The notes under the pieces: generated by a model | The model's input: only the letters and a program-made list of their open reading frames with translations | The model's database searches: none | Told to the model about the DNA's origin: nothing | Virus record (IMG/VR): IMGVR_UViG_3300014325_000025 | Coordinates: 1-40,474 of that record | Source: a virus | Length of the DNA: 40,474 nucleotides | Strand: one strand, 5' to 3' | Position numbers and translations under genes: made by a program | Shown here: positions 280 through 36,912 of the stretch, piece after piece | Position numbering within the stretch: position 1 is the stretch's first letter | Layout of the letters: every line of letters starts with the position of its first letter

Positions 280-680
280 CAGTCGGCCAGGATCTCCCCG
301 TCCGCATCCGTCACGCCGAGGTCGCGCGCCTTGGCCTCGGCCGCGCGAAGAGCCTCACCCCATGTCCGACCGCGATCCTGCTTCACCTGAGCATGCTCGA
401 GGATGTTCCCCGCGGCGGTGCTCCCGCGGTCAAACATCCCAGCGACCGCCACGCCCTCATATACGGACAGCGTTTCCAGGGACACGCCTTCGGCGTGCAA
501 AGCGTGGGCGATCAGACATCCGGGCACGGCCGTGCCCGTGACAAGGTCCCCGTGAATGTAATAGCAACCATCCCGGTCACCGTTTTCGTTGACGTAGATG
601 GTGCCCTCACGGCCAGCAACAGCCTGCCGCAGGGCCAGCAGGGCTCTACTTGGTGTGATCTCAGCAAGAGACGTCATCAT
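279..680 (-). CDS. Conserved phage protein, paralogue of the gene at 7341-7736
   Basis: A 133-residue protein. It aligns along its whole length with the product of 7341-7736: both begin with an LAEITPSRAL / LEEITPGRAL segment, have a CYYIHGD / CYYLHGR core, PGCLIAHAL / PGCLIGHAL, then TWGEAL and an ALGVTDA-type C terminus. No catalytic motif is obvious. The start overlaps the upstream stop (ATGATG, so either ATG is possible). Two diverged copies in one operon suggest duplication or acquisition of a paralogue. Function unknown. Confidence 0.8.
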   Translation of the reverse strand: MMTSLAEITPSRALLALRQAVAGREGTIYVNENGDRDGCYYIHGDLVTGTAVPGCLIAHALHAEGVSLETLSVYEGVAVAGMFDRGSTAAGNILEHAQVKQDRGRTWGEALRAAEAKARDLGVTDADGEILAD

Positions 681-1219
681 CCGCCGTTCATGTGGTAGGC
701 GAGGGCCTGTACCGCGCGCGAAAACCGCTTCCGCGCAGTCACATCCGTGGGGTCGTAGCCGGTCAACGCGTTCCGCTGGTCAGCTGACAGGCATTCCCAC
801 CCGATGGCCATGTCCGCCATGCCGGCCAGAGGCTCACTGGCTGCCGCGCCAGGGTCCACAGGCTCACTGCCCACAGGGACCGGCGCGGCCTCCCAACCGT
901 CTCGGGAGGCCAGGAAGACGGGCAGCAACGCGCGGACATCATCCGTGCTGTACCGCCACTGACCGGTACGGGCGAGGTAGGCGGCACGCTCACGCCTGCA
1001 GTAGCTGTCCGCCGTCCGGCGGGCAGCAGCATTGACTTCCTGCCGACTCGCCGAGGTCGGGTCCGGCCAGCCGGACAACAGCCGGATCATGATTTCCTGC
1101 GCCAGGTCGGCGGCCTCGATGGGATAGCCGTACCGCGCGGCAAAGCCTCGCGCTACCCCATCCGCCTGCGCCTGCAGCCGCTCGAAGCATTCCACGGCCT
1201 GTTCCGGACTCCACGTCAT
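677..1219 (-). CDS. Sigma-factor-like protein (region 2-like N terminus)
   Basis: 180 residues. The N-terminal half contains YPIEAADLAQEIMIRLLSGW (about residues 31-50), which resembles the DLxQEvfl helix of sigma-70 region 2 in ECF-like proteins. A basic helical segment (RRTADSYCRRERAAYLART) follows, and a C-terminal helical part (DQRNALTGYDPTDVTARKRF) could be a degenerate region 4 helix-turn-helix. Such sigma-like genes are common in actinophages, though promoter recognition has rarely been shown. The start at 1219 overlaps the preceding small basic gene (ATGA). A general DNA-binding regulator is the alternative. Confidence 0.65.
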   Translation of the reverse strand: MTWSPEQAVECFERLQAQADGVARGFAARYGYPIEAADLAQEIMIRLLSGWPDPTSASRQEVNAAARRTADSYCRRERAAYLARTGQWRYSTDDVRALLPVFLASRDGWEAAPVPVGSEPVDPGAAASEPLAGMADMAIGWECLSADQRNALTGYDPTDVTARKRFSRAVQALAYHMNGG

Positions 1220-10361: not shown

Positions 10362-10829
10362 CTACGCCCTGCGCGACGAGCGACACAGGGTCCGAGGAGG
10401 CTGCCTGATCAGGGTCTCGCCCGGCCGCGCGGGCACGTACGCCCAGCCACCGTGAATCGGGCTGGCGGCGTTGGGCGGCACGTCCGGATGGTAGTAGACC
10501 ACCATGCCGTCGCGCGTCAGGGCCTGGACCCACTGCGTGTAGGCGCGCGCCTCGGCGGGTTTCAGCGCCTCACCCGCCAGCACCCGGCCGTGACAGCGGA
10601 GCATGTGCGCCGGATAGCACATCCGGTGAGCCTGGACGCTGATGCGCCACGGCAAGCCCTGTCTATGGTCCACATTCTGGGCGACAATATGGTACTCACG
10701 GAGCTTGGCATAGACGGCGGTTTCGGTCACGCCGTATTTCTCGGCTATCTGCTTGTAGGTCATGGGATCGGGCGGGCGCCTGTGGGCCGCGAGGACAGCC
10801 GCGGGCGGCAGTTTCGGACGCTGCGGCAT
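10362..10829 (-). CDS. L5 gp71-like immunity repressor
   Basis: 155 residues from ATG 10829, preceded by GTGGAGATTGGC. A TTG at 10898 would lie in the promoter, so the internal ATG is chosen. An N-terminal helix-turn-helix (MTYKQIAEKYGVTETAVYAK, about 23-42) is followed by PW...H, a helical middle, then WVQALTRDGMVVYYHPD and GGWAYVPARPGETLIRQP. This order matches the repressors of cluster A mycobacteriophages such as L5 and Bxb1, which bind asymmetric stoperators as monomers. The phage carries a matching set of repeated 13-bp sites. Assignment as the lysogeny repressor is strong by family and context. Confidence 0.8.
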   Translation of the reverse strand: MPQRPKLPPAAVLAAHRRPPDPMTYKQIAEKYGVTETAVYAKLREYHIVAQNVDHRQGLPWRISVQAHRMCYPAHMLRCHGRVLAGEALKPAEARAYTQWVQALTRDGMVVYYHPDVPPNAASPIHGGWAYVPARPGETLIRQPPRTLCRSSRRA

Positions 10830-10869
10830 GCCAATCTCCACTCGCAGGAATGGGCCAATCTCAAGAGAG

Positions 10870-10908
10870 ACTCTATCCCCCACATGGGGGTCAGTCAAAC
10901 CTAAGGTT
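10870..10908 (-). promoter_or_regulatory. Repressor promoter with autoregulatory site
   Basis: On the minus strand, TTGACT (10893-10898), a 17-bp spacer and TAGAGT (10870-10875), placing transcription start about 35 bases ahead of the repressor ATG. A variant repressor site (AACCTAAGG core, 10896-10908) overlaps the -35, as expected for autoregulation. The promoter position supports the downstream ATG at 10829. Confidence 0.7.
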
Positions 10909-11089: not shown

Positions 11090-12148
11090 GTGATCCACGT
11101 TCCATCAAACCTAAGCATCGCAGAGGCCGCGGACATCTACCTGCGCCACAGGCGGGCGCGGTTCGCCGCAGGCACCGTGGGCAAGATCGAACGCGTGCTC
11201 CGCGAGGTCGCGGAGCACTTCGCGCGCCGCGCGTTCATCCGGATAACACCGGACGACATGGCCGACTACTGGGCGATCATCACTGCCCTGCCGAGAGAGC
11301 CCCGCGGTGAGCCTGCGACCGCGGGCACCGCGCGGAATTGGTTTTATGTGCTGAAATCATTCACCGCATGGAGCGCTGACCGTAAATACTGCCAGGTAGG
11401 CATGATGAGGGAGATTCACCTGCCACCACCCCCGCCGCGGAAAGACTACCTCTATCTGACCGCGGATGAACTCATTGTGGCGATAGAGGACGCGGCGAAT
11501 CCGCGGAACCGTTTCGCCCTGGCGCTGTTGGCGAACACTGCGGGGCGAGCGAAGGAGATATGTCGTATCAACGTCGGGCATCTGGACCTCGACAACGATA
11601 TGATGTACTACCAGCCCGTCAAGGGCGGACAGACGGACCGCATGCCCATCACTGCGGAACTTCGGCAGGAAATCGGCCGATGGCTACCCGCCTATTCCCG
11701 TCTCTACGGCGGGCAGCTGACCGAGGGCATGCCCCTGGTGCCCGGTATCCACGCGGGCAACTGGGGGCACAAACGGGTCGTCCGATTGACCGGACGCAGG
11801 GCGTCACCCAACGCGTTGGGCCATGCCGCGCAGGCGATGCTGCGCGGCCTCGGCTACACCGATGCGCAACGTGAGAGAGAGGGCACCCACACCATCCGTC
11901 GCAGCGTCGCCAGGCTGGCGTTTGACGCTGCGGCAGAGTCCGGTAGCGGCTACAGTCACGCCCTGGCCGAGGTTGCCGCCCTGCTGCACCACAAGAGTAC
12001 CGTTACCACGGAGAGATACATCGGCCTCACCCCAGGCCGTGTCGCACGCGATACGAGAATGAAAGGCCAGCCGTTTCTAACACCGATGAGGAAGAGTGGC
12101 AGACCCGAAGGACAAATCATCCGACTCGCAGGGCAGGAGAAGGCATAG
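11090..12148 (+). CDS. int: Tyrosine integrase
   Basis: 352 residues. An N-terminal SAM-like DNA-binding domain (SIAEAADIYLRHRRARFAAG onward) is followed by a catalytic domain with Arg in NTAGRAKEI (R153), HTIRRS (H267, R270), LLHHKS (H300/301) and the nucleophile in TTERYIG (Y310). This is the R-H-x-x-R-H-Y set of tyrosine recombinases. It integrates the phage at a host attachment site, so the phage is temperate. GTG at 11090 is used by default. A repressor-type site (11106-11118) lies within the first codons, so initiation or elongation could be repressed. Confidence 0.93.
   Translation: MIHVPSNLSIAEAADIYLRHRRARFAAGTVGKIERVLREVAEHFARRAFIRITPDDMADYWAIITALPREPRGEPATAGTARNWFYVLKSFTAWSADRKYCQVGMMREIHLPPPPPRKDYLYLTADELIVAIEDAANPRNRFALALLANTAGRAKEICRINVGHLDLDNDMMYYQPVKGGQTDRMPITAELRQEIGRWLPAYSRLYGGQLTEGMPLVPGIHAGNWGHKRVVRLTGRRASPNALGHAAQAMLRGLGYTDAQREREGTHTIRRSVARLAFDAAAESGSGYSHALAEVAALLHHKSTVTTERYIGLTPGRVARDTRMKGQPFLTPMRKSGRPEGQIIRLAGQEKA
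11106..11118. promoter_or_regulatory. Variant repressor site inside the integrase start
   Basis: CAAACCTAAGCAT, matching the AACCTAAG core of the family, falls within codons 6-10 of the integrase. It is followed by CGCAG, as is the site at 11039-11051. It lies downstream of the promoter, so it would work as a transcription roadblock if bound. Confidence 0.5.
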
Positions 12149-13146: not shown

Positions 13147-13152
13147 GATCCT

Positions 13153-13182
13153 ATTTAACCTAAGTTTCGACTGCGATGTCAA
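13153..13182 (-). promoter_or_regulatory. Leftward promoter with embedded repressor site
   Basis: On the minus strand, TTGACA (13177-13182), an 18-bp spacer and TTAAAT (13153-13158). TTAACCTAAGTTT at 13155-13167 covers the -10 and spacer. It drives the leaderless small gene and the clamp-like gene. Confidence 0.75.
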
Positions 13183-13233
13183 GCTCACTCTGGGTAGATG
13201 TGACGAGCATCACCCAGTTTTCATGTCACGATC

Positions 13234-13262
13234 TTGACGGTTGTGACACATATATATAAGTA
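13234..13262 (+). promoter_or_regulatory. Rightward promoter before the hairpin array
   Basis: TTGACG (13234-13239) followed at 15-17 bp by the AT-rich TATATATAAGTA (13251-13262). The predicted start is near 13268, within the first hairpin of the array. No repressor-type site overlaps it. Confidence 0.55.
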
Positions 13263-13264
13263 GA

Positions 13265-13475
13265 GGCAAGCCCCCCGCGGGGCTTGCCGACAAAGCGCCC
13301 CCAAGGGCGCCCACACAGAAACACCAACAACAGCCCCCGACACCGGGGGCTGTTTGCATGTCTAGCACAGTAGAAACACCTAAACGACAAAAGCTACCTC
13401 AGACTAGACAAAAGGGCGAGCCAACCAGGCTCGCCCATATAAGCAAACAATAAGGGCGCCCCACAAGGGCGCCCT
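13265..13475 (+). ncRNA. Array of five perfect hairpins (structured leader or small RNA)
   Basis: Five perfect stem-loops without a gene: 13265-13288 (10-bp stem), 13295-13310 (6 bp), 13329-13354 (10 bp), 13414-13436 (9 bp) and 13453-13475 (9 bp). They differ in sequence, so they are not simple repeats. They fill the gap between the divergent leftward promoter and the HNH gene and begin where a rightward transcript should start. An antitermination element, tandem terminators or an independent RNA are the options. An AT-rich stretch (13481-13493) follows. Confidence 0.6.
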
Positions 13476-13507
13476 ATTAGTATATATAATAAAGAAGGCA
13501 GTTGATC

Positions 13508-14775: not shown

Positions 14776-14803
14776 GTGAGGGGTGGCCGAGGCCGCCCCT
14801 CAC
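14776..14803. terminator. Hairpin between convergent genes
   Basis: GTGAGGGG-T-GGC, loop CGAG, GCC-G-CCCCTCAC lies between the rightward lipoprotein gene and the leftward accessory block. It probably ends transcripts from both sides, although it lacks a strong T run. Confidence 0.6.
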
Positions 14804-14815
14804 GGCGAGTGATGA

Positions 14816-15000
14816 TCAGGCCGCCTTGACGCGTAGCTCATACGGCACCGCCGTGCCGTGCGGTGGGGGCCGGGGGTGCATGCGGCCATATACCAGGCCG
14901 ACGCGGACCTGGTGGCCCCCCCCCGCCTCGGCTGTTGACCGACGATGAGTTTGACGCGCTGCTGCGCGCGGGTGGACCGCCTGTAGCGGAATGACGAAGG
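14816..15000 (-). pseudogene. Possible degraded small gene interrupted at a C9 run
   Basis: On the minus strand one frame reads RYRRSTRAQQRVKLIVGQQ and another, downstream of a nine-base homopolymer (about 14918-14926), reads HQVRVGLVYGRM then HGTAVPYELRVKAA. The latter resembles the GTALPMEIKFVAF end of the gene at 15552-15908. Joining the two would need a frameshift at the homopolymer. Either a decayed paralogue or a sequencing error is possible, and no intact start is seen. Confidence 0.3.
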
Positions 15001-15020
15001 GCTCCCCGTAGGGAGCCCTT
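14997..15020. terminator. Hairpin at the distal end of the CRISPR-like array
   Basis: A perfect 10-bp stem (AAGGGCTCCC / GGGAGCCCTT) with a CGTA loop ends exactly where the first CRISPR-like repeat begins. For a minus-strand transcript it would be the 3' terminator of the array. Confidence 0.65.
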
Positions 15021-15231
15021 CTGTGCCCCCACGGTCGTGAGGAGGGTGCGACGCCTGCAACATCACGTCGGGAAGAGTGGTGGTTCACCCCCACGGTCGT
15101 GGGGAAGGCTGTCGCAGCGTCCTGCTGCTGGCGTCAGCCGCTGGTTCACCCCCACTGAGGTGGGGAGGGTGTTGCCATGTGCCTGCTGCATGCACCGGCA
15201 GGTGGGACACCCCCACGGTCGTGGGGAGGTG
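15020..15231 (-). CRISPR. Mini-CRISPR array, type I-E-like, four repeats and three spacers
   Basis: Four 28-nt units start at 15020, 15082, 15143 and 15204, a period of 62, 61 and 61. The spacers (15048-15081, 15110-15142, 15171-15203; 34, 33 and 33 nt) are unrelated. Three of the four units share CACCCCCAC and all keep a CCCCAC...GTGGGG-type stem, with one mismatch in the first. Read on the minus strand the repeat ends GTGGGGGTGAACC, like actinobacterial type I-E repeats. The repeats are imperfect: the 15143 unit has a different loop, and the outer two have decayed ends. No cas gene is present. The array begins 16 nt after the stop codon of the gene at 15248-15484, so the two are probably cotranscribed. 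Confidence 0.68.
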
Positions 15232-15247
15232 GCGCGGACACAGCATA

Positions 15248-15484
15248 TCAGGCAACGCACACCTTGCGGTACCCCTCGGCCGATCGCGTCTCGCCTACGC
15301 CCTTGCCGTAGTTGCCGATCGGCCCGTAGTCGATGGTGACCGTGCCGGCCTCCTCGTCATGCTCCTGTACGTTGACAGGGTGCCCGTCCGGGTCTAGCCA
15401 GATCCACCCCCCGTCCGCGGTCTCCGCCGCGTGGATCTGCTCAGGCGTTGGCGTTCCGATCAGGTTCATGTCCGCATCGAACAT
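15248..15484 (-). CDS. Hypothetical accessory protein upstream of the mini-CRISPR array
   Basis: 78 residues, starting MFDADMNLIGTPTPEQIHAA and containing GGWIWLDPDGHPV and TVTIDYGPIGNYGKGV. It looks like a small beta-rich domain. It has its own promoter (15527-15555) and a purine-rich leader. Its 3' end runs straight into the CRISPR-like array on the same strand. Function unknown. Confidence 0.7.
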   Translation of the reverse strand: MFDADMNLIGTPTPEQIHAAETADGGWIWLDPDGHPVNVQEHDEEAGTVTIDYGPIGNYGKGVGETRSAEGYRKVCVA

Positions 15485-15526
15485 GGCGCGCCCCGTGGCC
15501 CTCTCCCCCCCTCGTGGTGTGACACC

Positions 15527-15555
15527 ACTCTATCCGAACCGCATGACACTATCAA
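15527..15555 (-). promoter_or_regulatory. Accessory promoter P1 (palindromic -35 family)
   Basis: Minus strand TTGATA (15550-15555), 17-bp spacer, TAGAGT (15527-15532). The -35 lies in a decayed copy of the 21-bp palindrome. GGTGTCACACC near the start point is also found at the promoters at 36818 and 38144. It reads through the 78-residue gene into the mini-CRISPR array. Confidence 0.75.
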
Positions 15556-15908
15556 AAGGCTACGAACTTGATTTCCATCGGCAGAGCCGTGCCGTACGCC
15601 CTGCCCGCCAGCAACCTGGCGAACTTCTCACCCCCGCCGATCTTTCCCGCCCATGCGGGGAGCCGCTGATACGCGGCCAGGACGCGCGGATCCTCGGCCG
15701 CGATGAACCCGCCATCGGGGGCGGTCACTCCGGCGGTGGCCACCACGCGGATGTTCCGCCCGGACCGGTCGGTGTCGCTGTAGACGCTAATCACGGCCTG
15801 GCCGTTGGCCAGGTCTGAGGCCAGGTCGCCATCCTCGGGTGTCCAGCCGTCCGCGTTATACAGCGCGGCCTCGTCGCGGACGCGTTCCGGTGTCCAGCTG
15901 TCTGCCAT
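15552..15908 (-). CDS. Hypothetical accessory protein
   Basis: 118 residues beginning MADSWTPERVRDEAALYNAD. It contains QAVISVYSDTDRSGRNIRVV and ends GRAYGTALPMEIKFVAF. It is acidic at the N terminus. The gene has its own promoter with the palindromic -35, and its stop codon overlaps the -35 of the next promoter. Function unknown. The C-terminal segment resembles the possible pseudogene at 14816-15000. Confidence 0.72.
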   Translation of the reverse strand: MADSWTPERVRDEAALYNADGWTPEDGDLASDLANGQAVISVYSDTDRSGRNIRVVATAGVTAPDGGFIAAEDPRVLAAYQRLPAWAGKIGGGEKFARLLAGRAYGTALPMEIKFVAF

Positions 15909-15938
15909 TTCGGTTCCCTCTCTCTCGGCTGTGGCCTC

Positions 15939-15967
15939 AGTCTAGGCGAACCGCATGACACGGTCAA
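15939..15967 (-). promoter_or_regulatory. Accessory promoter P2 (palindromic -35 family)
   Basis: Minus strand TTGACC (15962-15967), 17-bp spacer, TAGACT (15939-15944). The half-sites GCATGACAC and GGTCAAATGG form a partial copy of the palindrome. It drives 15552-15908. Confidence 0.75.
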
Positions 15968-15984
15968 ATGGTTCCGGGAATGGG

Positions 15985-16011
15985 AAAGGGCACCCGGCGG
16001 GGGTGCCCTTT
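15985..16011 (-). terminator. Terminator after 16014
   Basis: AAAGGGCACCC, a 5-nt loop and GGGTGCCCTTT directly follow the minus-strand gene ending at 16014. It is a classical intrinsic terminator shape with a short T run on either side. Confidence 0.8.
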
Positions 16012-16013
16012 GG

Positions 16014-16202
16014 CTATTCGGTGAAGCCCTGCCCGACCTCGATGACCTTGAAGCCGAGGTTTTCCATGACAGCCCGCGCCCCGTCCGCGCTGTAGGCGCG
16101 GACACTGCTGACCACCTCGCGCTCTCCGATGGCCACCAGGTGCTCTCGGTGCTTGACCGGGTAGAACATCTGCCCTGCCTCAAGCTTCGGCATGTGGTCC
16201 AT
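16014..16202 (-). CDS. Hypothetical accessory protein
   Basis: 62 residues beginning MDHMPKLEAGQMFYPVKHRE. The ATG at 16202 follows GCGGGAGGCCAGAC. A longer frame upstream would cover the promoter and is excluded. It contains EREVVSSVRAYSADGARAVM and then VIEVGQGF, suggesting a small alpha/beta fold. It is one of a set of single-gene cassettes with own promoter and terminator. Function unknown. Confidence 0.7.
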   Translation of the reverse strand: MDHMPKLEAGQMFYPVKHREHLVAIGEREVVSSVRAYSADGARAVMENLGFKVIEVGQGFTE

Positions 16203-16245
16203 GTCTGGCCTCCCGCTTTGTAGTTGTTTCCCGCTTGCAAGGGCA

Positions 16246-16274
16246 AGCCTAAGCGAACCATATGACATCGTCAA
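16246..16274 (-). promoter_or_regulatory. Accessory promoter P3 (palindromic -35 family)
   Basis: Minus strand TTGACG (16269-16274), 17-bp spacer, TAGGCT (16246-16251). The palindrome CCATATGACA-TC-GTCAAATGG spans the -35. A weaker -35 (ATGACA) faces the other way, so the site could also serve the terminase small subunit gene. Confidence 0.75.
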
Positions 16275-16308
16275 ATGGTTCCCCATGATTTTTTAGGGGG
16301 TGACCTCG

Positions 16309-16764
16309 ATGGCACCACGGACGAAGCCAACGGCTTTGAAGCTGCTGCAGGGTGACGACAGGACGCACCCCGGTCGGATCAACCGCGCCGAGGCCGCGCC
16401 ACCGGTGGTCACGGACCTGGTACCGCCGATTGAGCTGGACGCCGAGGCGCAACGGGTGTGGGATCATTTCGGCCCGATGCTGCGCAGGCAGCGCCTGTTG
16501 ACCGAGGCCGACCGGCTTTCGTTCGCTGCGCTCTGCCAGTCATGGAGTCTGTACGCCGAGGCGTCCGCCACGGTGCGGCGTGAGGGCACGCTGACGGTTG
16601 GGGTTAAGGGTCAGCCGGTGCGGAATCCTGCCGCCCTGGTGGCGAAGGACGCGCTACAGGACTACATGCGCCTAGCCACGGAGTTCGGCCTGACCCCGTC
16701 CAGCCGTGCGCGGATCGTGCTGCCCGCGGCGGATGGCGATGACCTCGACGCGATGCTCGCCTAG
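16309..16764 (+). CDS. terS: Terminase small subunit (P27 family)
   Basis: 151 residues beginning MAPRTKPTALKLLQGDDRTH, the characteristic P27-family N terminus. It continues with the ELDAEAQRVWDHFGPMLRRQ helix pair and DRLSFAALCQSWSLYAEA, and ends TEFGLTPSSRARI. It recognises the packaging site and recruits the large subunit. ATG 16309 follows AGGGGG, and a GTG three codons upstream is less well placed. Unusually, a block of minus-strand genes separates it from the large subunit. Confidence 0.92.
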   Translation: MAPRTKPTALKLLQGDDRTHPGRINRAEAAPPVVTDLVPPIELDAEAQRVWDHFGPMLRRQRLLTEADRLSFAALCQSWSLYAEASATVRREGTLTVGVKGQPVRNPAALVAKDALQDYMRLATEFGLTPSSRARIVLPAADGDDLDAMLA

Positions 16765-16808: not shown

Positions 16809-17450
16809 CTAGGCCCCTTCGTGACCCCGTTCCGTGGCCGTCGCTGCGATGCCGCGGGCTACGGCCACGACCATCCCGGGCCGTGCGAATCGGCCGAGTT
16901 GCTCGGTTGCCCGCTGCACCGCCCATGCGGGCGGGGGCGTGTCCAGCCCAGCCCGGGCCGGCGTCCGCGGTCCGAACGTGAGTTTGTTGTCGGGCAGGAC
17001 GGCCGCGGGCAGCGTCTGCGGCCCGTAGTTCTTCCTGATCTTTGATGCTGCCGCCGCGCGGGCACGCGCGGGGAAGTTTTTCCTGGGAGGGGTAGTGCCA
17101 GGGAGGGGTCCGGATTCCCGGACGCTGCCCGCATCATGATCGGTACCATTCGGCCCGGTTTGGGTCCGGCCCGCCGGACGCTCCGCGAACAGCAGGCGGT
17201 AGACGGCCCGCCGACCTCTGCGGGCCGTCTCGGCTAGGGCGATCAGGCCGTGCGCTGCTAGCCGCGCGAGCGTGGCGGACAGCTGCGACCGCTTTAGCCC
17301 GGATCGTGCGGACAGGATGTCGTGCCCGGGGGACGCGACGTCACGCCCCGCGCGGCAGTCCTCCGCGAGGGCAACCAGGACAACGCGCTCTTGTGGAGTG
17401 AGTTTGCCGGGGAGCAAATCCCATGCTGCGAGCATGTGACCGAGGCTCAT
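16809..17450 (-). CDS. Winged-helix DNA-binding protein
   Basis: 213 residues, ATG 17450 after GGAGAG. The N-terminal 75 residues look like a winged helix: LTPQERVVLVALAEDCRAGR, SARSGLKRSQLSATLARLAA (recognition helix) and RRGRRAVYRLLF (wing). A long basic, Pro/Arg-rich disordered middle follows, then a C-terminal helical part (PPAWAVQRATEQLGRFARPG). The layout resembles phage replication-initiator-like and regulator proteins. It lies between the two terminase genes on the opposite strand and is transcribed from a promoter overlapped by a repressor-type site. Confidence 0.72.
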   Translation of the reverse strand: MSLGHMLAAWDLLPGKLTPQERVVLVALAEDCRAGRDVASPGHDILSARSGLKRSQLSATLARLAAHGLIALAETARRGRRAVYRLLFAERPAGRTQTGPNGTDHDAGSVRESGPLPGTTPPRKNFPARARAAAASKIRKNYGPQTLPAAVLPDNKLTFGPRTPARAGLDTPPPAWAVQRATEQLGRFARPGMVVAVARGIAATATERGHEGA

Positions 17451-17511
17451 GTGATACACTCTCCTTGCTCATGTGGTGTGTGCGCACTGTGAATGCGCGC
17501 ATGCGTTCGGG

Positions 17512-17546
17512 GTAGGCCCTCCCGGTTGCCGGCCGGGAGGGCCTAC
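17512..17546. terminator. Strong hairpin between the Cys-rich peptide and winged-helix genes
   Basis: An inverted repeat GTAGGCCCTCCCGG / CCGGGAGGGCCTAC is followed on the plus strand by CTTTTTG. For the minus-strand transcript it lies between two cotranscribed genes and could set their relative expression. For plus-strand readthrough it would be a terminator. Confidence 0.65.
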
Positions 17547-17558
17547 CTTTTTGGGCAC

Positions 17559-17961: not shown

Positions 17962-18008
17962 TTAACCTAAGTTTCGGGCATCTTATATAACCTAAGCTTC
18001 TGTGTCAA
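17962..18008 (-). promoter_or_regulatory. Doubly-operated promoter between the 77-residue gene and terL
   Basis: Minus strand TTGACA (18003-18008), 17-bp spacer, TAAGAT (17980-17985), driving the gene at 17711-17944. Repressor-type sites occupy 17987-17999 (in the spacer) and 17962-17974 (past the start), exactly 25 bp apart. Read on the plus strand, TTAACC and TATAAC with an 18-bp gap could form a divergent promoter whose start would fall almost at the terL GTG. Confidence 0.7.
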
Positions 18009-19651
18009 CAACACGTTTCGAGGGGGCAGTGATCACCTCCCCTGAAATGTGGCGCCATGATGAGGCCCGCGCGGACCGCGCGCAAAAATTCATCGAACGA
18101 ATATTGGTCCACACGAAAGGCCGTCACGCCCGTACCCCGTTCATTCTCGAGCCCTGGCAGCGTGACGACATTATCCGACCGCTCATGGGCACCACGATGT
18201 GGGATGAGCAGCTAGGCCAGTGGGTCAGGCAGTACCGTCTAGCCTGGATTGAGCTAGGTCGCAAGAACGGCAAGTCGGAGCTGCTCTCCGCTATGGCGCT
18301 CTATTTCCTGGTGGCCGATGGGGAAGAATCCGCCGAGGTCTACTCGGCGGCCTGCGATCGTGATCAGGCAGGTCTGGTCTATGCCGTCGCGAAGCGGATG
18401 GTTGAGCTTTCCCCTGTGCTGTCGAAGCGACTGGAAGTCATCGACTCTAAGAAGCGCATCGTTGACGCTAAGACGAATTCTTTCTATCAGGTACTTGCCG
18501 CCGATGCGGGCGGCAACCTCGGGCAGAACCCGCATGCAATTCTGTTCGATGAGGTTCTGACCCAGCCTAATCGGGAATTGTGGGATGCGCTGAAAACCGG
18601 TATGGGCACACGTTCCCAGCCGATGATGATTGCTGCGACGACGGCAGGCACGACCGGCGCGGCGTTTTGCTTAGAGGAACACGAATTCTCGGAGCTTGTT
18701 GACGCCGATTCGCAGACGGATCCGCACCGGTTTGTGTTCATGCGGAACACGCCGGTTGATTGGGAATGGACCGATGAGGGTCATCCCCCCGATCCCACGG
18801 CGGGCGTTGAGGCAACAGGCTGGTATCAGGCGAACCCTGCGCTAGGCAGCTTCCTGAGTATCGTCACGCTACGCGCCGAGGCCGAGGAGGCCAAGAAAAG
18901 GCCATCCGCGCAGAACGCGTTCCGACAGTTCCGATTGAACCAGTGGGTTAGCCAGACGAGCAGATGGTTAGACATGGGCATCTGGGATGCCTCGGCCGGA
19001 CCGATACCCGCCGGAGAGTTGCCGCAGCTGCTGACGGGCAGCGTCGCCTACGGGGGCCTGGACCTGGCCTCGGCGAGCGACTTTGCCGCGTGGTGTCTGG
19101 TCTTCCCGGGGGAGGATCGGACCGCGGCAGTCTGGCGGTATTGGGTTCCCGAGGCCGCGGTCGCGCGGCATCGGGCCGCCGACCGGATAGCCGTGTGGGC
19201 CCGGCAGGGCCATGTGACAATCGTCCCCGGCGCGACCATTCCGTTTGACGATATCGAAACAGCCATCCATGAAGACCTCGAACGTTTCGACGTCCAGCGG
19301 GTCGGCTACGACCCGTGGCAGTCACCGCAGATCGTTCAGCGTCTCGAGGATGCTGGCGTTGTCTGCGTGAAGGTCCCACAGACGCTTACGCGTCTGTCGG
19401 CCCCGTCGAAAGAGCTCGAGCGGCTGTTGGCGGAACGGCAGCTAGCGCACGGCGGGCAGCCTGTGTCCAGGTGGATGGCGGACAACGTTGAGGCGGTAAG
19501 GGACGGGGAAGGAAACATTCGTCCGTCGAAAAAGAAATCCGCCGACAAAATCGACGGTGTTTCCGCGCTGGTGAACGCTCTGTTTGTGAACCTCTTGCCG
19601 GATGAAACTCCGGACGTTCCGGAGGTGATTTCCCTGGAGGATTTCCTATGA
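18002..19651 (+). CDS. terL: Terminase large subunit
   Basis: 549 residues. The ATPase part has a Walker A-like GRKNGKS (86-92) and Walker B AILFDEV (179-185). The C-terminal nuclease has YGGLDLASASDFAA (first catalytic Asp), YDPWQ and DGVSALVNAL (last Asp). It is a HK97/phage-type packaging motor that translocates and cuts DNA. GTG 18002 has no ribosome-binding site and follows a possible -10 by about ten bases, so leaderless translation is possible. GTG 18029 is an alternative. Part of the coding sequence (19063-19089) recurs exactly in the repeat-protein gene. Confidence 0.95.
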   Translation: MSTTRFEGAVITSPEMWRHDEARADRAQKFIERILVHTKGRHARTPFILEPWQRDDIIRPLMGTTMWDEQLGQWVRQYRLAWIELGRKNGKSELLSAMALYFLVADGEESAEVYSAACDRDQAGLVYAVAKRMVELSPVLSKRLEVIDSKKRIVDAKTNSFYQVLAADAGGNLGQNPHAILFDEVLTQPNRELWDALKTGMGTRSQPMMIAATTAGTTGAAFCLEEHEFSELVDADSQTDPHRFVFMRNTPVDWEWTDEGHPPDPTAGVEATGWYQANPALGSFLSIVTLRAEAEEAKKRPSAQNAFRQFRLNQWVSQTSRWLDMGIWDASAGPIPAGELPQLLTGSVAYGGLDLASASDFAAWCLVFPGEDRTAAVWRYWVPEAAVARHRAADRIAVWARQGHVTIVPGATIPFDDIETAIHEDLERFDVQRVGYDPWQSPQIVQRLEDAGVVCVKVPQTLTRLSAPSKELERLLAERQLAHGGQPVSRWMADNVEAVRDGEGNIRPSKKKSADKIDGVSALVNALFVNLLPDETPDVPEVISLEDFL

Positions 19652-36817: not shown

Positions 36818-36847
36818 ACATTAGCCTGATCCATTTGACACTGTCAA
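36818..36847 (-). promoter_or_regulatory. Accessory promoter P5 (perfect palindrome)
   Basis: The -35 TTGACA (36842-36847) is inside the perfect palindrome CCATTTGACA-C-TGTCAAATGG. The -10 is TAATGT (36818-36823) at an 18-bp spacing. GGTGTGACATCAC near the start point resembles the element at P1. It drives 36578-36787. Confidence 0.72.
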
Positions 36848-36883
36848 ATGGTTACCGTGTGACCTGGTTCACATCGTATCCAT

Positions 36884-36912
36884 TTGACAGTGTCAAATGG
36901 TTCGGTTAGGCT
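36884..36912 (+). promoter_or_regulatory. Accessory promoter P6 (perfect palindrome)
   Basis: TTGACA (36884-36889), 17-bp spacer, TAGGCT (36907-36912), with the perfect palindrome CCATTTGACA-G-TGTCAAATGG across the -35. It is divergent from P5, about 35 bp away. It drives 36944-37174. Confidence 0.85.

What the first reader, a model, noticed from the sequence alone, without database searches (positions are those of the whole stretch)
13234..13500. Five consecutive perfect hairpins right after a rightward promoter
Seen: stems of 10, 6, 10, 9 and 9 bp at 13265-13475, all different, no gene, preceded by TTGACG and a TATATATAAG box. The first stem begins at the predicted start of transcription. 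Known: HK022 put RNA uses paired hairpins at the start of early transcripts for processive antitermination. Inferred: a put-like antiterminator, tandem attenuators or a stable RNA. The rightward transcript would have to cross several terminators to reach the terminase genes.
Basis: partly seen in the sequence, partly recalled or inferred. Interest (0 to 1): 0.76.

Follow-up and report, generated by a model that had tools for sequence, protein, structure and literature searches.

The report
Hairpin-array leader RNA of actinophages
The five hairpins are real and form the untranslated front end (leader RNA) of the phage's DNA-packaging operon; similar hairpin arrays, different in sequence but kept in structure, sit in the same place in dozens of related actinobacterial viruses, and they probably control how RNA polymerase gets through this operon, which nobody has tested.

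Summary
It is far beyond chance (fold z -10.7; 4 stems >=8 bp against at most 1 in 1000 shuffles). The array fills the leader between a rightward promoter-like site and an HNH gene that heads the HNH-terminase operon. It is not private to this phage. In 30 loci with an HNH upstream of a related terminase, hairpins peak just before the HNH start (8.3/kb against roughly 0.2-2/kb). Stems covary with compensatory changes. In most relatives, not significantly in the window, the leader opens with a helix of tandem G.A pairs; a covariance model finds it 20 times in 909 kb, always on the + strand and at the array's start. No Rfam family matches; U-tails are rare, so these are not ordinary terminators. 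I conclude: a conserved, apparently undescribed structured leader RNA of actinophage packaging operons (about 0.85). Most likely mechanism: cis control of transcription elongation, antitermination-like (about 0.35-0.4). HK022-put membership is not supported. Rivals: hairpin-cluster attenuator, RNA-protecting leader. No expression data exist here, so mechanism is inference.

The parts
13224..13248 (.). inverted repeat TGTCAC-N13-GTGACA, putative operator/activator site upstream of the rightward start
   Evidence: sequence; same GTCAC-N12-GTGAC placed before TTATTAAGTGAGG in L094, L096, L100, L101; other inverted repeats in the same place in L027 and, by eye, in L070/L072
13234..13260 (+). promoter-like site TTGACG (13234-13239) / TATAAG (13255-13260), spacer 15
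   Evidence: sequence; not called by the consensus scan; AT-rich box in the same place in relatives
13265..13288 (+). hairpin H1, 10 bp, at the predicted 5' end; flanked by one possible tandem G.A step (13263-13264 with 13289-13290)
   Evidence: model R1 gives only 4.6 bits here, not significant
13295..13310 (+). hairpin H2, 6 bp, loop CCAA
13329..13354 (+). hairpin H3, 10-11 bp, loop ACAC
   Evidence: MFE and local folds
13414..13436 (+). hairpin H4, 9 bp, loop AACCA
13453..13475 (+). hairpin H5, 9 bp, loop CACAA
13508..13840 (+). HNH endonuclease (phrog_144 type), first gene of the rightward operon
   Evidence: PF01844 and phrog_144
16300..16764 (+). small terminase subunit
   Evidence: PF05119, phrog_83
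17511..17547 (+). strong intrinsic terminator (14-bp GC-rich stem, TTTTT tail) between small and large terminase
18002..19651 (+). large terminase subunit
   Evidence: tblastn to phage terminases
13153..13182 (-). leftward promoter TTGACA-18-TTAAAT, divergent from the array promoter; its -35 overlaps a GATGTCAAG motif

Best explanation
The array is the 5' untranslated leader RNA of the rightward HNH-cos-terminase-virion operon. Transcription starts beside the inverted-repeat site at about 13260-13266; the nascent RNA folds one hairpin after another up to the ribosome site of HNH. Shown by comparison: conserved position, conserved structure, strand. Inferred: the folded leader acts in cis on the elongating RNA polymerase (suppressing pausing and intrinsic or Rho-dependent termination in the long, cos-crossing, high-GC operon), i.e. 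it works like an antitermination leader, probably switched on late by a phage factor such as the sigma-like protein.
For: Hairpins (stem >=8) peak at 8.3/kb in the 200 nt before HNH, 4.2/kb in the 200 nt before that, against mostly 0.2-1.7/kb elsewhere, in 30 loci. Local folding z: mean -4.9 in 29 leaders, -1.0 in 105 control windows, p 7.5e-13. Compensatory changes in two homologous hairpins of ten G1 loci (arms GGACACCC, GGGCGCCC, GGACGCCC, GGGCGGCC; and GCCCAGGC, GCCGTGGC, GCCGAGGC, GCCAGGGC, GCCATGGC, each with its exact complement); counted on the alignment, 8 pairs changed on both sides against 3.2 shuffled. 5' tandem-G.A helix: 94.7% of cells paired against 71.4% shuffled, 18 double-changed cells against 5.4, all slid registers far lower, wobble pairs are U-G on the + strand; model R1 hits 20 leaders, all + strand, none elsewhere at E<0.05 in 909 kb; contigs fetched by the G.A-helix sequence alone also show downstream hairpins and HNH (L160, L164, L165, L177) or, by eye, a terminase-like reading frame (L145). 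Unpaired bases A-rich over T in 24 of 26 leaders, p 2.5e-5. Leftward genes left of the array, HNH-TerS-TerL to the right, in nearly all relatives. The sigma-like phrog_354 gene is present in the window and 16 of 17 relatives.
Against: No transcript data. Hairpin number and sequence turn over fast (1 perfect stem >=7 in the L027 leader, about 5 here, up to 8 in L070), more like a generic structural role than a specific RNAP-binding fold. The window itself lacks a significant G.A-helix match. Few U-tailed terminators lie between HNH and TerL in relatives. HNH relatives L056/L062 have no array before HNH.
Confidence: 0.4

Rival explanations
1. RNA-protecting leader: the 5'-terminal stem and the following hairpins block 5'-end-dependent RNase E/RNase J decay and/or Rho loading, stabilising an abundant late mRNA; no change to RNA polymerase itself.
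For: The stem begins at the predicted +1 in the window and near the 5' end in relatives; structure but not sequence is kept and hairpin number varies, as expected for a generic shield.
Against: The 5' G.A helix is conserved in sequence and register over several groups, more than a generic shield needs; a short leader would do the same with less.
Confidence: 0.25
2. Hairpin-cluster attenuator: the array is a stack of terminators without U-tracts right after the promoter, which keeps the operon off in the lysogen until an antiterminator acts.
For: Hairpin clusters without poly-U were proposed to terminate transcription in many bacteria (PMC8355165); the array follows directly on a promoter.
Against: U-tails are rare (5% of array hairpins on +, 10% on -) while at least two terminator-like hairpins of the same phage have T5-T7 tails (17511, 34443); no switch to an alternative antiterminator fold was identified.
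Confidence: 0.2
3. Leftward terminators: on the minus strand the hairpins are followed by T-rich tails and stop leftward antisense transcripts before the early control region.
For: Three of the window hairpins score as terminators on the minus strand; the window has leftward ORFs at 14800-16286.
Against: Relatives without such leftward genes have the same arrays; minus tails are T-rich in only 10% of array hairpins; the G.A helix and its G-U pairs make sense only as + strand RNA.
Confidence: 0.07
4. Free small RNA: the leader is released as a stable non-coding RNA or decoy acting in trans.
For: Strongly structured; could be processed between hairpins.
Against: Mostly directly in front of HNH or terminase, ending at its ribosome site; no terminator at its end.
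Confidence: 0.08
5. DNA-level element: operators, cruciforms or cos/packaging signals rather than RNA.
For: Close to the packaging genes; perfect palindromic stems are symmetric on both strands.
Against: Each hairpin of one array has a different sequence, so no single DNA-binding protein is served; cos appears to lie between HNH and TerS (L003 and L004 start at the same base there; Chymera ends after HNH); strand-specific G.A/G-U helix.
Confidence: 0.05

Closest known systems
HK022 put RNA (putL/putR) cis-acting antiterminator
   Same: structured RNA close to a phage promoter, proposed to act in cis on elongation
   Different: put is ~70 nt with two stem-loops and serves early promoters, acting through the RNAP beta' zinc-binding domain (PMC9378689); here ~240 nt, five or more hairpins, in front of HNH/terminase, actinobacterial hosts, no RNAP data
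lambda pR' late leader (6S RNA / Q-dependent antitermination)
   Same: position: promoter and ~200-nt leader at the head of the operon that runs through cos into terminase and head genes (general knowledge)
   Different: no Q-like gene found among the proteins scanned; many hairpins; a sigma-like protein instead
Hairpin-cluster (non-U) terminators of bacteria (Gupta and Pal 2021, PMC8355165)
   Same: closely spaced GC-rich hairpins without U-tract
   Different: those lie after stop codons; these lie between promoter and start codon
Rfam RNA families (release 15)
   Same: structured RNA in a leader position is a common kind of Rfam family
   Different: no family reaches its gathering score in the window, and only tRNAs do in seven relatives

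Membership tests
HK022-type put RNA | about 70 nt made of two stem-loops | tested here: not met
   five to six stem-loops over ~240 nt
HK022-type put RNA | conserved put sequence and unpaired residues | not tested
   no put sequence was compared; the Rfam scan shows no match at gathering score but presence of a put model was not checked
HK022-type put RNA | terminator read-through in cis without phage protein, blocked by beta' zinc-domain mutations | not testable with these tools
   needs transcription assays
HK022-type put RNA | located in a phage transcript leader near its promoter | tested here: met
   the promoter itself is predicted, not shown
intrinsic terminators (U-tailed) | GC-rich hairpin followed by a U-tract | tested here: not met
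   T in 8 nt after the window hairpins 0, 0, 3, 2, 4; 5% of array hairpins with >=5 T
hairpin-cluster attenuator | transcripts ending within the cluster | not testable with these tools
   no RNA-seq
actinophage hairpin-array leader (this report) | hairpin array directly upstream of an HNH that precedes terminase, at a divergent junction | tested here: met
actinophage hairpin-array leader (this report) | 5' tandem-G.A helix (model R1) | tested here: not met
   window 13260-13293 scores 4.6 bits, not significant; one G.A step only
known Rfam family | score above gathering threshold | tested here: not met

The most novel reading that the evidence does not exclude
A new, widespread class of cis-acting phage antiterminator RNA: a tandem-G.A helix at the 5' end, followed by a replaceable hairpin array, that modifies actinobacterial RNA polymerase for processive transcription of the packaging and virion operon.
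Probability: 0.2. Interest if true: 0.9.

Novelty: new variant of a known kind. Interest (0 to 1): 0.7.

Why it matters
How temperate actinophages switch on and sustain transcription of their long packaging and virion operons is, to my knowledge, poorly understood. A conserved leader RNA with a defined 5' motif gives a concrete, testable candidate, present in a Frankia-type prophage, other isolate prophages and many soil viruses. It would also be a candidate new structured-RNA family and possibly a natural part for controlling termination in high-GC bacteria.

Tried and rejected
(1) Direct DNA relatives of the array: none in the phage collection above noise, no exact stem in viral contigs. (2) Strand test by mismatched stems: only 8 one-mismatch stems, no signal. 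(3) Inner-arm C/G polarity looked strand-specific but is symmetric for perfect palindromes, so it was dropped. (4) Fold energy of + against - strand: not significant overall, p 0.17. (5) Terminator crossing as a general need: few + strand terminators in relatives. (7) Named phages with the same HNH: no match for the window's HNH or L067's, only weak ones for L036's. (8) G.A helix in the window: not significant. (9) MAFFT misaligned some G1 hairpins by one column, so the pair counts are conservative; arms were compared directly. (10) Literature searches found no description of such leaders in the open papers searched, which is weak evidence of absence.

Full report
What the window is. The window is an IMG/VR contig of a temperate actinophage-like virus: leftward early genes, among them primase, DnaB-type helicase, exonuclease, RNA ligase, methylase, a sigma-like protein and a repressor, an integrase at 11090-12148, then a divergent junction at about 13150-13260 followed by rightward HNH, small terminase, large terminase and virion genes. 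The closest relative found is a prophage of Parafrankia sp. EUN1f (large terminase 77% identical). No named phage in the collection has a large terminase closer than about 42%.

The observation. All five stems exist at the stated places. The region folds far better than shuffles (z -10.7) and the density of long perfect stems is not reached in 1000 shuffles. A sixth weaker stem-loop lies between H3 and H4. The promoter pair is present but its spacing is 15 rather than 17. What supports a promoter is the inverted repeat TGTCAC-N13-GTGACA next to an AT-rich box; relatives L094, L096, L100 and L101 carry GTCAC-N12-GTGAC and then TTATTAAGTGAGG at the head of their arrays.

Conservation of the array. 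A large-terminase profile brought in 80 viral loci, and an HNH profile located an HNH gene in front of terminase in many of them. Upstream of that HNH most loci carry arrays of GC-rich hairpins whose sequences differ between groups. Across 30 loci the hairpin density is 8.3 per kb in the last 200 nt before HNH and 4.2 per kb in the 200 nt before that, against mostly 0.2-1.7 per kb elsewhere. Local folding z-scores average -4.9 for 29 leaders and -1.0 for control windows. The loci are related, so these are not independent samples. Gene layout is the same almost everywhere: leftward genes, an intergenic stretch, then HNH and terminase rightward.

Covariation and strand. In ten alignable leaders (group G1) two homologous hairpins carry four and five different arm sequences, each with its exact complement; the pair count on the plain alignment gives 8 pairs changed on both sides against 3.2 in shuffles, and 75% of cells paired against at most 60% in slid registers. 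Perfect palindromes do not tell the strand. The 5' end of the leader does: in many groups it is a helix of G-C pairs interrupted by tandem G.A steps in exact register, e.g. GGGAGGGAAGGAGGGAGC/GCGACCGACTGACCGACC in L005. On twelve sequences 94.7% of the standard-pair cells are paired, with 18 double changes against 5.4 in shuffles, and the wobble pairs are U-G on the + strand. A covariance model of this helix finds 20 loci in 909 kb, all on the + strand and all at the start of the leader, several not used to build it. Contigs fetched by this sequence alone also show arrays and HNH or, in L145, a terminase-like frame right behind. Unpaired leader bases are A-rich over T in 24 of 26 loci. Together this supports a rightward RNA.

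Where the window differs. The window's H1 sits where the G.A helix would be, but only one tandem G.A step flanks it and the model score is not significant. So the window belongs to the family by position, promoter repeat and array, not by the 5' motif.

How it may work. The leader precedes an operon that probably crosses cos: L003 and L004 start at the same base between HNH and small terminase, and Streptomyces phage Chymera has HNH as its last gene and small terminase as its first. That is the logic of the lambda late leader (general knowledge). The hairpins are not ordinary terminators. I therefore favour a cis-acting elongation-control leader, antitermination-like, with a protective leader and a hairpin-cluster attenuator as rivals; the sequence cannot decide. 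The sigma-like phrog_354 protein, present in the window and 16 of 17 relatives, is a candidate activator of this promoter; that link is inference. The strong terminator at 17511-17547 in the window is consistent with a need for read-through, but relatives mostly lack such sites.

Novelty. No Rfam family matches, and the literature searches in the open papers available found no description of it. As a thing it is a candidate new structured RNA; as a kind of system it is a phage leader RNA, hence 'new variant of a known kind'.

Noticed in passing
window 677-1219 (-): Sigma-factor-like protein (phrog_354, Sigma70_r2 weak); the family is present in 16 of 17 relatives' records and rings in none of 14 control genomes.
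   Followed up: partly
window 10362-10898 (-) and 13174-13182: Repressor of phrog_357 type, found in 14 of 17 relatives; a GATGTCAAG motif overlaps the leftward promoter -35 and resembles mycobacteriophage L5 stoperators (from memory).
   Followed up: partly
window 36831-36851 and 36880-36900: Two near-identical palindromes CCATTTGACA(C/G)TGTCAAATGG 49 bp apart, possible operators.
   Followed up: no
L003:1 and L004:1, against L005 about 1408: Separate contigs begin at the same base between HNH and small terminase, suggesting the cos end.
   Followed up: partly
L005, L036, L027, L088 between small and large terminase: tRNA genes (three, three, one, one) inside the packaging operon; none in the window.
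   Followed up: no
L056, L060, L062, L063 upstream of HNH: These loci lack the hairpin array before HNH; the stretch there looks like a second, leftward HNH-like gene; the L062 record also lacks the sigma-like and repressor families.
   Followed up: partly
L189, L190, L193, L195, L200, L203, L207-L209, L212, L213: An unrelated recurrent hairpin with two tandem G.A steps, TATGAAGGAGGC-GAA-GCCGACTGAATA and variants, in other viral contigs.
   Followed up: no
window 16809-17459 (-): Replication-initiation-like/HTH gene on the minus strand between small and large terminase; the strong terminator 17511-17547 lies just upstream of its start.
   Followed up: no
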